From: a virus
Length of the DNA stretch: 35,070 nucleotides
Strand: one strand, 5' to 3'
IMG/VR virus record: IMGVR_UViG_3300031857_000664
Span: 1-35,070 of that record
A program made the translations under genes and the position numbers. Numbering within the stretch: position 1 is the stretch's first letter; every line of letters starts with the position of its first letter. The notes beneath the pieces were generated by a model. It did no database searches. It saw only the letters and a list, made by a program, of their open reading frames with translations, and was not told the DNA's origin. Of this stretch, positions 18,979-21,030 are shown piece by piece.

Positions 18979-19015
18979 GCGATTCGGTTGCCAACTGGCA
19001 GGGACACCCCACCGC

Positions 19016-19133
19016 ACAGCTCCGGCTGTCCGGTGGGCTGATACCCGCCACACTGCTTCGCTTTGCTTCGCGTCGCCTCGCATTCGACGCAGCGCCTCTC
19101 GCCGCACACCACAGGGGGCCGGATTCCGGCCCC
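19016..19133 (+). repeat. Hairpin module A (non-coding leader of the 19163 gene)
   Basis: Small hairpin ACAGC/GCTGT (19016-19029), then GGTGGG-CTGATA-CCCGCC (19032-19049), then a C/T-rich variable tract with GCTTCGCTTTGCTTCGC, then CACACCACAGG leading into GGGGCCGG-ATT-CCGGCCCC (19115-19133). This is the solitary copy of the module that is repeated at 20309-20882. Confidence 0.6.
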
Positions 19134-19162: not shown

Positions 19163-19792
19163 ATGGCCTTCCGCCGTTTCGAGCTGACGATCCAGGGCAC
19201 CCGCCCTCTGATCTTCGGCAACCCCTGCGAGATGGATCCCCTCGGGATCCACAAAGCCGCTACCGACTACTTCACCAGCCTCAAGAAGAACCGCAACGAA
19301 CACGCACTCCGCCGGCTCAAGTGGTTGTTCTCCGGCTACTGGGGCACCGAGGGAGAGTTCGTCTACGGTCCTGCCCTGGATGGTGACTCCAAGTTCCGCG
19401 GTTTCTCCGATCCATTTCTGCCTGCCCACAATCTGCAGCGTTGCATCCGCGACGGCGCTACCGCCTGGAAGCTCGGCAAAGACACCAAGCGGGCCATCGT
19501 CGTCGAGAACGACGCGGAGCTGATCTACGACGGGCCCCGTGATGCGGAGCTGATGTACGAAGATCCGCGCTTCGTGTCCGTCGCCCCCACCGGCCGTGGT
19601 GTCGTTGCCGTCAGGCTCCGGCTGCCCCAGTGGAGCGCGACCTACAACCTCCTCGTCAACGACGAGATCATCGATCCCACGACGCTGGCGAAGATCATCG
19701 ACCGCGCCGGTATTGCCGAAGGCCTCGGCACCTGGCGGCCCGCCAATGGCCGTTTCAGCGTCACCCGGCTCGACGAAGTGGAGGTGGCCTGA
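19163..19792 (+). CDS. Conserved phage protein, paralogue of the 28184-28831 gene
   Basis: The product has 209 residues, with AGGA 8 nt before the ATG. The N-terminus RFELTIQGTRPLIFGN parallels LELEIEGTSPLVINR of the protein encoded at 28831-28184. The C-terminal ~80 residues also align: VAPT, then R-x-R with W-x-A, then IDRAGIAEGLG and RPANGRFSV. The family is frequent in tailed phages and I do not know a proven function. It is translationally coupled to the next gene (TGATG). Long frames upstream of the ATG belong to the non-coding module. Confidence 0.7.
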   Translation: MAFRRFELTIQGTRPLIFGNPCEMDPLGIHKAATDYFTSLKKNRNEHALRRLKWLFSGYWGTEGEFVYGPALDGDSKFRGFSDPFLPAHNLQRCIRDGATAWKLGKDTKRAIVVENDAELIYDGPRDAELMYEDPRFVSVAPTGRGVVAVRLRLPQWSATYNLLVNDEIIDPTTLAKIIDRAGIAEGLGTWRPANGRFSVTRLDEVEVA

Positions 19793-20307
19793 TGTCGAGC
19801 CCCAGGATTGCATCGATCGATGCCATGTCCCTCTACAAGGGACAGACCATCCCCGCCGATCAGGCGTGGACCTACTTCATCACCCGCCGGCAAGAGACCT
19901 ACCAGGGCTGGCTGACCCAGCACGGTGACGAGGAGACCGCGAAGGCGGCCCGCCTGTCGCTTGTGTTGCAGCGGGTGATCCAGTGGCTGGAGCGCGACCG
20001 CAACCAAGCGGGGCTGCCGCCGCTGGTGATGAACACCTCCGGTGGTTGCATCAACGTGCTGACCGATGACAAGGCGAGCGCCTACCTGAACGATCAGGCC
20101 TTCTCTGGCCTGCGTCGTCACCAGCGGGCCACTGGCCGACTGGTCAACGCGGTTGACGAATCGAAGCTCACCGGTGCCGCCCGGCGGGAGCACCAGAACA
20201 GGATCAACGTTCACAGTTTCATCGCGGCCTCGGCCCAGGGCGCACAGAAGCAGCTCCGGCTGTTGAAGCGTGCCGGCAAGCAGGCGCCGAAGCTGGAGGG
20301 GAGCTGA
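19792..20307 (+). CDS. Hypothetical partner of the preceding gene
   Basis: The 171-residue protein begins at the TGATG overlap. It is mostly helical: ADQAWTYFITRRQETYQGWL, KAARLSLVLQRVIQWLERDR, and a basic C-terminal half with AARREHQNRINVHSFIAASA and KQLRLLKRAGKQAPK. The basic tail suggests nucleic-acid contact. No family was recognised. The stop overlaps a following ATG (20307) whose frame runs into the hairpin array and is not credible as protein. Confidence 0.6.
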   Translation: MSSPRIASIDAMSLYKGQTIPADQAWTYFITRRQETYQGWLTQHGDEETAKAARLSLVLQRVIQWLERDRNQAGLPPLVMNTSGGCINVLTDDKASAYLNDQAFSGLRRHQRATGRLVNAVDESKLTGAARREHQNRINVHSFIAASAQGAQKQLRLLKRAGKQAPKLEGS

Positions 20308-20308
20308 T

Positions 20309-20882
20309 GGCCTGGGCATCCGTCAGGTGTAAGCCCCAGGCCGCCGCGCCCCGCGCCCCGTCTCAATGCCCCGCGCCCCGTCTCAATGCCCTGCGACACC
20401 GCGCCGCGCGACGCCTTGCCTTGCGACGCACTCCACAGGGGGGCCCTCCGGGGGCCCGCCCACCCCAGCCCGCAGCCACCGGCTGCCTGGTGGGGTGACT
20501 CACCACGACGCCGCGCCTCGCCACGATCGCGCCGCTTCGCTGAGCCGCGCAGCGCAACGCACACCACAGGGGCCCCTCACGGGGCCCACAACCCACCCTC
20601 CGACCTATGGTCTGACGGTGGGCTGATGCCCACCACTCCGCGCCGCCGTGCTGCGCTTTGCTTCTCACCGCCACTCTGCGCCCAGCGTCCCTGCGCCGCT
20701 CGACGCAACGCACACCACGGGGGGCCTCAATCGAGGCCCCACACCCCACCGCTGAGGGCTCCTCTCCGGTGGGTTGACCCACCACCGGCGCATCGCACCG
20801 CTTTGCTCCGCATTGCTCCCCCCAGCCATGCTCCGCTGCGCATCGCCGCCCGCCGCGACTCACCGCACAGGGCCTTCCGGCC
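20309..20882 (+). repeat. Array of four three-hairpin modules with variable C-rich tracts
   Basis: The junction unit consists of H-a (CACCACRGGGGCC, loop, GGCCCC), a small hairpin H-b and H-c (GGTGGG-YTGAY-CCCACC). H-a copies lie at 20441-20457, 20570-20587, 20721-20740 and 20871-20882. H-b copies are GCAGCC/GGCTGC (20472), GACC/GGTC (20602) and GAGG/CCTC (20754). H-c copies lie at 20489-20504, 20617-20634 and 20768-20783. Variable tracts of ~55-90 nt separate the units. No gene in any frame is credible here. The region from 20883 to 21030 holds no further unit that I can see, only the leader of the next gene. Confidence 0.65.
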
Positions 20883-21030
20883 ACCACCGACCCGGCACCC
20901 CCGGGGCTTTCGTTTGGCAACCGAACCGCCCCACGCAGCACTCTGCACCGTTCTGCACCACCCCGCACCGTTCTGGGATCTTCCGGCCCCATCCGGCTAC
21001 CGTGCGGGCACCACCACCAACCACCGCCCC

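What the first reader, a model, noticed from the sequence alone, without database searches (positions are those of the whole stretch)
20309..20882. Array of covarying three-hairpin modules separated by variable tracts
Four units in tandem, plus a solitary one at 19016-19133, share the order H-a (CACCACRGGGGCC...GGCCCC), H-b and H-c (GGTGGG-YTGAY-CCCACC). H-b is different in each unit but always pairs: ACAGC/GCTGT, GCAGCC/GGCTGC, GACC/GGTC, GAGG/CCTC. H-a loops and stems change while pairing is kept. A CCCACC before H-b can also pair with the GGTGGG of H-c, so alternative folds are possible. Covariation argues for selection on RNA or single-stranded DNA structure. Between the units lie 55-90 nt of unrelated C-rich sequence. 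This fits no known element that I can name.
Basis: seen in the sequence. Interest (0 to 1): 0.85.

Follow-up and report, generated by a model that had tools for sequence, protein, structure and literature searches.

The report
Cyanophage guide-RNA array (VIPR system)
The hairpin array is a set of guide RNAs written in five-base steps (CGC plus two variable bases) beside the gene for their partner protein: a cyanobacterial virus's version of the recently described VIPR system, an RNA-guided weapon that viruses appear to aim at competing viruses.

Summary
The gene just upstream (19163-19792) matches the solved SUSP1 Vipr protein (E=6.6e-14; Csm3/Cas7-like fold), the effector of VIPR, described in one 2026 preprint (PMC13142463). 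The "unrelated C-rich" tracts are pentamer arrays (CGC-NN)n: over 49 tracts from the window and about a dozen related phages, lag-5 identity is 0.51 against 0.32 shuffled, and the two N positions are fully variable (1.98 of 2 bits). This is the vrRNA architecture, with CGC in place of the published GGY. H-a is the covarying 3' tail. H-b/H-c lies directly 5' of most tracts and is a covarying, two-state hairpin found only around vipr. Locus layout matches SUSP1 (one vrRNA before vipr, an array after the second gene). Two guides from related phages, read by the published 1-nt-skip rule, spell the terminase-small-subunit motif WRAAAW-x-L-E-H. Targets of the window's own guides were not found. Novelty: new variant of a known kind (CGC/NN code, interspersed switch-like modules, cyanophage host). 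The preprint's supplement, which lists "related consensus" motifs, could not be read, so CGC/NN may already be recorded there.

The parts
19008..19049 (+). H-b/H-c module (two-state hairpin) directly 5' of the upstream vrRNA
   Evidence: covariance model R1, 56.7 bits; coordinates; one arm is shared by two alternative helices
19050..19109 (+). vrRNA 0 guide tract, (CGCNN)n, about 12 dinucleotides, with one 4-nt slip
   Evidence: pentamer HMM, 25.7 bits over background
19108..19133 (+). vrRNA 0 3' tail hairpin (H-a)
   Evidence: H-a arm-swap covariation over 41 tails; coordinates
19163..19792 (+). vipr gene: RAMP/Cas7-like RNA-guided effector protein, 209 aa
   Evidence: profile match to PDB 36pp 'SUSP1 Vipr protein' E=6.6e-14; BLASTP to SUSP1 Vipr E=1e-16, 27%; PHROG 4652 for both; Foldseek Csm3/Cas7 E=3.6e-4
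19792..20307 (+). second gene of the operon, candidate vap (VIPR accessory), helical, no known relatives
   Evidence: overlaps vipr by 1 nt; relatives found beside vipr in the related contigs; no match to SUSP1 vap1 or to solved folds
20309..20342 (+). conserved leader element CTGGGCATCCGYNAGGTGTAAGCCCCAG, directly 5' of the first downstream tract
20340..20433 (+). vrRNA 1 guide tract, about 18 dinucleotides, holding a 20-nt duplication of four pentamers (20348-20387)
   Evidence: 20.9 bits
20432..20457 (+). vrRNA 1 tail (H-a)
20459..20504 (+). H-b/H-c module
   Evidence: R1, 45.2 bits
20505..20564 (+). vrRNA 2 guide tract
   Evidence: 25.2 bits
20563..20587 (+). vrRNA 2 tail (H-a)
20592..20634 (+). 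H-b/H-c module
   Evidence: R1, 45.5 bits
20635..20715 (+). vrRNA 3 guide tract, 16 dinucleotides TC GC CG TG TT TT AC CA TG CC GT TG CG GA AA AC
   Evidence: 22.9 bits
20714..20740 (+). vrRNA 3 tail (H-a)
20745..20783 (+). H-b/H-c module
   Evidence: R1, 42.6 bits
20784..20865 (+). vrRNA 4 guide tract, 16 dinucleotides
   Evidence: 23.2 bits
20862..20882 (+). vrRNA 4 tail (short H-a), end of the array
   Evidence: sequence

Best explanation
This is a VIPR locus of a cyanophage. Shown by sequence: a Vipr (RAMP) gene and a second gene are flanked by one upstream and four downstream guide-RNA units. Each unit is a (CGCNN)n tract ending in a covarying 3' tail hairpin (H-a). Most units are introduced on their 5' side by a structured element (H-b/H-c, or the CTGGGCATCC leader, or in relatives a CACCYGC...GCRGGTG hairpin); in several relatives the first unit instead starts just after a -10-like promoter. 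Inferred from the SUSP1 work: Vipr coats the RNA in five-nucleotide steps, the CGC triplets are held by protein, and the NN pairs read double-stranded DNA with one skipped base between pairs, silencing genes of competing phages or satellites. Inferred with less support: H-b/H-c separates or processes successive vrRNAs in the common transcript, its shared GGTGGG arm switching between two helices. In two related phages the guides appear to be aimed at terminase small subunit genes.
For: Vipr homology: PDB 36pp E=6.6e-14 over the C-terminal part, including the G-rich GLGTWRPxxGRF segment; 27% identity to SUSP1 Vipr; same PHROG; Csm3/Cas7 fold. Guide code: lag-5 identity 0.512 against 0.322+-0.008; the HMM, started from random parameters, learns C .76, G .78, C .96, N, N with N entropy 1.98 bits and gains 769 nats. 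In the window it marks the five tracts at 21-26 bits; nothing else exceeds 12.3 bits. Phase lock to the tail and lengths in steps of 5. SUSP1 tracts show the same lag-5 and lag-10 signal and the same locus layout. Covariation. The module is confined to the vipr locus in 7 whole records. Target code: guides L008_u2 and L009_u2 decode by the 1-nt skip to S[IM]W[RS]AAAWLL[DE][HQ] and T[DE]WRAAAW[IM][FL][DE][HQ]; their shared pattern hits 21 viral contigs, 18 of them with the WRAAAW motif in frame with the skip at the wobble base, and the six tested belong to terminase small subunit PHROG 4102. Two of their five differing NN pairs are synonymous (AG/CG Arg, CT/TT Leu); chance is 2.5% per pair.
Against: The fixed triplet is CGC rather than GGY. 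The second gene is not similar to SUSP1 vap1. No natural target was found for the window's own guides w3 and w4, and a direct HMM test of decoded peptides was inconclusive because they are too short. The terminase hits were selected with a pattern made from the guides, so only their concentration in one family and the synonymous differences count as independent. No RNA data. A few tracts carry one-base slips of phase.
Confidence: 0.93

Rival explanations
1. The hairpins are regulatory RNA or attenuators controlling the flanking phage genes, and the tracts are neutral GC-rich spacers.
For: Two mutually exclusive helices share GGTGGG in H-b/H-c, with near-equal energies in several units; the units lie between genes.
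Against: The tracts are not neutral: 5-periodic with maximal entropy at exactly two positions, phase-locked to the tail; they sit beside a Vipr gene in all relatives; no U-tract follows H-c.
Confidence: 0.03
2. A CRISPR-like or TIGR-like repeat-spacer array in which the hairpins are the repeats and the tracts are contiguous spacers.
For: Array of repeats and variable tracts beside a RAMP-fold protein.
Against: The tracts keep a fixed CGC at every fifth step, which contiguous spacers would not; hairpin sequences differ between units; no other cas-like gene was recognised beside it.
Confidence: 0.02
3. Structured single-stranded DNA such as recombination or REP-like mobile elements.
For: Nearly palindromic units in tandem; weak model matches on the other strand.
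Against: Wobble-type changes fall on one strand only (25/25 in H-c); absent outside the vipr locus in whole records; an H-c pattern is absent from 84,980 species genomes.
Confidence: 0.02

Closest known systems
VIPR system of Escherichia phage SUSP1 (type II VIPR; PMC13142463)
   Same: Homologous Vipr protein; second gene downstream; one vrRNA upstream and an array downstream; tandem pentamers of a fixed triplet plus NN; structured 3' tail; a hairpin 5' of each tract also in SUSP1 (my reading).
   Different: Triplet CGC instead of GGY; tail is a GC-rich simple hairpin; inter-unit H-b/H-c two-state module; unrelated second gene; cyanophage instead of enterobacterial phage.
Hammerhead-interspersed VIPR arrays (mentioned in PMC13142463)
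   Same: A structured element lies between successive vrRNAs.
   Different: No hammerhead or other Rfam family in these arrays; H-b/H-c lacks the GAAA part of the hammerhead core.
Class 1 CRISPR-Cas (Csm3/Cas7)
   Same: RAMP fold of the protein.
   Different: No CRISPR repeats, no cas genes, noncontiguous guide code.
TIGR-Tas (PMC12045711, abstract only)
   Same: Phage-borne tandem guide RNA array.
   Different: Effector there is a different protein family (from general knowledge, Nop-domain); here a RAMP; no Pfam domain found in either gene.

Membership tests
VIPR | Vipr protein (minimal RAMP homologue) | tested here: met
VIPR | vrRNAs of about 9-16 pentamers: conserved triplet alternating with hypervariable NN (GGY/NN or a related consensus) | tested here: met
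   period 5, CGC/NN, 10-18 dinucleotides in most units, N entropy 1.98 bits; the triplet differs from GGY, and whether CGC is in the preprint's 'related consensus' list could not be read
VIPR | conserved structured 3' tail after the tract | tested here: met
   H-a follows the tracts; arm-swap test 10.8 sd; pseudoknot not tested
VIPR | vap accessory gene beside vipr | tested here: inconclusive
   conserved second gene present but no homology to vap1; vap2-6 sequences not available
VIPR | targets read by the 1-nt skip rule, skip base at the codon wobble | tested here: inconclusive
   two relatives' guides spell a terminase small subunit motif; the window's own guides w3 and w4 have no target found
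VIPR | about 100-nt RNAs expressed and co-purifying with Vipr; dsDNA binding and repression | not testable with these tools
   needs sRNA-seq, pull-down and reporter assay
Hammerhead or other Rfam ribozyme between vrRNAs | match to a known ribozyme covariance model | tested here: not met
   no Rfam match in the window at gathering score, none relevant at E<1, none in 8 related loci at E<0.5
CRISPR array | near-identical repeats with contiguous spacers, cas genes | tested here: not met
   repeats vary by covariation, tracts are 5-periodic; no other cas-like hit for the neighbouring genes scanned

The most novel reading that the evidence does not exclude
A VIPR lineage with a rewritten guide scaffold (CGC/NN instead of GGY/NN) whose vrRNAs are separated by a previously undescribed two-state RNA module (H-b/H-c) that releases each guide, as a new self-cleaving ribozyme, a Vipr- or host-cut processing site, or a switch controlling how far the array is transcribed.
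Probability: 0.3. Interest if true: 0.8.

Novelty: new variant of a known kind. Interest (0 to 1): 0.66.

Why it matters
It carries the newly found VIPR logic to viruses of cyanobacteria (probably picocyanobacteria), shows that the fixed triplet can be recoded to CGC while the period of five and the free NN pair stay, and supplies about a dozen natural arrays with 49 guides for testing how Vipr recognises its scaffold. The apparent aim at terminase small subunit genes would mean that cyanophages silence the DNA-packaging genes of rivals. The conserved two-state module between guides is a concrete RNA-processing question.

Tried and rejected
Rfam families, including ribozymes: none. tRNA: none. 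Host-genome repeat element: one H-c pattern has 0 hits in GTDB genomes, and the Vipr profile found no relative there with its two patterns. L043 pattern hit: chance, inside a terminase-like coding gene. S-H1, closest by helicase, lacks Vipr. Coding reading of the array: units shift frame (spacing 131, 151, 150), so no protein explains the repeats. Targets of w3 and w4: only seeds matched, flanks random. Skip-rule scan of held loci: no target clearly above shuffles. tblastn with the decoded w3 peptide: none. Decoded-peptide HMM scan: too short to pass filters.

Full report
WHAT IS THERE. The window is a 35,070-base virus record, about 70% GC, with head, tail, Erf-type annealing protein, helicase and methyltransferase genes. 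Its helicase is 84% identical to that of Synechococcus phage S-H1 and its major capsid protein is nearest to cyanophage PSS2 and Synechococcus phages S-CRES1-3, so it is most likely a cyanophage. The array region is identical in two other contigs (L001, L002).

All three hairpins exist. A covariance model of H-b/H-c finds four copies in the window (42.6-56.7 bits) and 1-4 in most relatives, with only weak shadows on the opposite strand. In seven whole virus records its strong hits lie only around the vipr gene. Over 26 units, covariation exceeds all 500 shuffles on the score and on double changes. H-a, tested by swapping arms between 41 tails, is 10.8 sd better in native combination; whole H-b is 7.9 sd better. 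GGTGGG can pair with the upstream CCCACC or with the downstream arm. Both are kept: L006 changed all three to TCCACC/GGTGGA/TCCACC, and all 25 substitutions in the downstream arm preserve pairing through G.U. Because those wobbles are pairs only on the + strand, the folded molecule is most likely RNA of the + strand, the strand of the genes. The tandem part has three complete units plus a final H-a; the solitary copy has H-b/H-c before H-a.

The tracts between hairpins are written in fives. In 49 tracts (3061 nt) self-identity at lags 5, 10, 15 and 20 is about 0.5, against 0.32 in shuffles (sd 0.008). A five-state cyclic HMM started from random values learns C-G-C-N-N with the two N positions at 1.98 bits each. 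Scanning the window with it marks the five tracts at 21-26 bits and nothing else above 12.3. CGC phase is locked to the tail (121 of 186 in one register for CACAGG tails) and most tract lengths differ by multiples of five.

IDENTIFICATION. The gene at 19163-19792, profiled with 12 relatives found in IMG/VR, matches PDB 36pp, "SUSP1 Vipr protein", at E=6.6e-14. Its predicted model (mean pLDDT 69) resembles Csm3/Cas7. The single paper in the library on VIPR (PMC13142463) describes Vipr plus vrRNAs of alternating GGY/NN pentamers with a structured 3' tail, one vrRNA upstream and three downstream of vipr and vap in SUSP1. I fetched SUSP1 and saw that layout and the same lag-5 signal. The window's locus matches: a tract and tail before vipr, a second gene, then four tracts with tails.

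ANATOMY OF A UNIT. Order: 5' element, (CGCNN)n, H-a tail. The 5' element is H-b/H-c, the leader CTGGGCATCCGYNAGGTGTAAGCCCCAG (20309-20342, and before vipr in L022), or in L005, L013/L026 and L020/L035 a different hairpin CACCYGC...GCRGGTG. In L008, L009, L014 and L020 the first upstream tract starts within about 20 nt of a -10-like hexamer, so there the 5' end may be the transcription start. I infer that the 5' elements separate or process successive vrRNAs. Predicted energies of the two H-b/H-c states differ by roughly 0-6 kcal/mol and are nearly equal in several units. No Rfam ribozyme fits.

TARGETS. For L008_u2 and L009_u2, the most similar pair of guides (z 5.3; the largest of 20 shuffle maxima was 4.8), the shared 1-nt-skip pattern hit 21 viral contigs. 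In 18 of them it lies in frame on a WRAAAWxL[DE]H motif with skipped bases at wobble positions; all six proteins tested belong to terminase small subunit PHROG 4102. Two 16-base patterns from window guides gave 3 and 13 scattered hits, so about 0.4-1.6 hits would be expected by chance for this longer pattern. The two guides differ at five dinucleotides, two of them synonymous (AG/CG for Arg, CT/TT for Leu); 2.5% of random differing pairs would be. A second related pair (L014_d3, L031_d1) decodes on the other strand to VSARHL followed by Y or F/L, again with one synonymous Arg difference. The hits themselves are homologues of the true targets, not perfect targets; the window's own guides remain unassigned.

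STATUS. Shown: Vipr homologue, pentamer code, covarying tail and module, locus layout. Inferred from SUSP1: RNP formation, dsDNA reading, silencing. Speculative: what H-b/H-c does. The preprint says all types use GGY/NN "or a related consensus" shown in a supplement I could not read, and it cites IMG/VR, so the CGC variant may already be in its data.

Noticed in passing
window 20348-20387: Perfect 20-nt tandem duplication of four pentamers inside guide tract 1, suggesting that guides grow by duplication of whole pentamers.
   Followed up: partly
window 20934-20980: Possible decayed sixth pentamer tract (20-nt repeats GCACCNNYCTGCACCGTTCT, 12.3 bits) after the array.
   Followed up: partly
L005, L013/L026, L020/L035 arrays: A different hairpin, CACCYGCNGCAGGCGCAYGAGCCGAGCRGGTG, takes the place of H-b/H-c between an H-a tail and the next tract.
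   Followed up: partly
L045 (SUSP1) intergenic regions beside vipr: A hairpin-like element (e.g. CACTTAAGAGTCTTCTAAGAGGGTTTTTAAGTG) also precedes each SUSP1 tract; the preprint's main text does not mention a 5' element.
   Followed up: partly
L008, L009, L014, L020 upstream of vipr: Shared promoter-like string (a TANNAT hexamer, then AAGTC or AAGCC) just before the first guide tract.
   Followed up: no
L012 u1 tract: A guide tract shrunk to about three pentamers between intact module and tail, possibly a decayed unit.
   Followed up: no
L006 downstream of gene 2: No downstream array; an ORF with repeated GGxGxD-like calcium-binding motifs follows instead.
   Followed up: no
L043 6150-6800 (reverse strand): Unrelated phage gene made of many 18-nt repeats (GGCAACGCATGGGTGTAC), a likely repeat-fold protein.
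   Followed up: no
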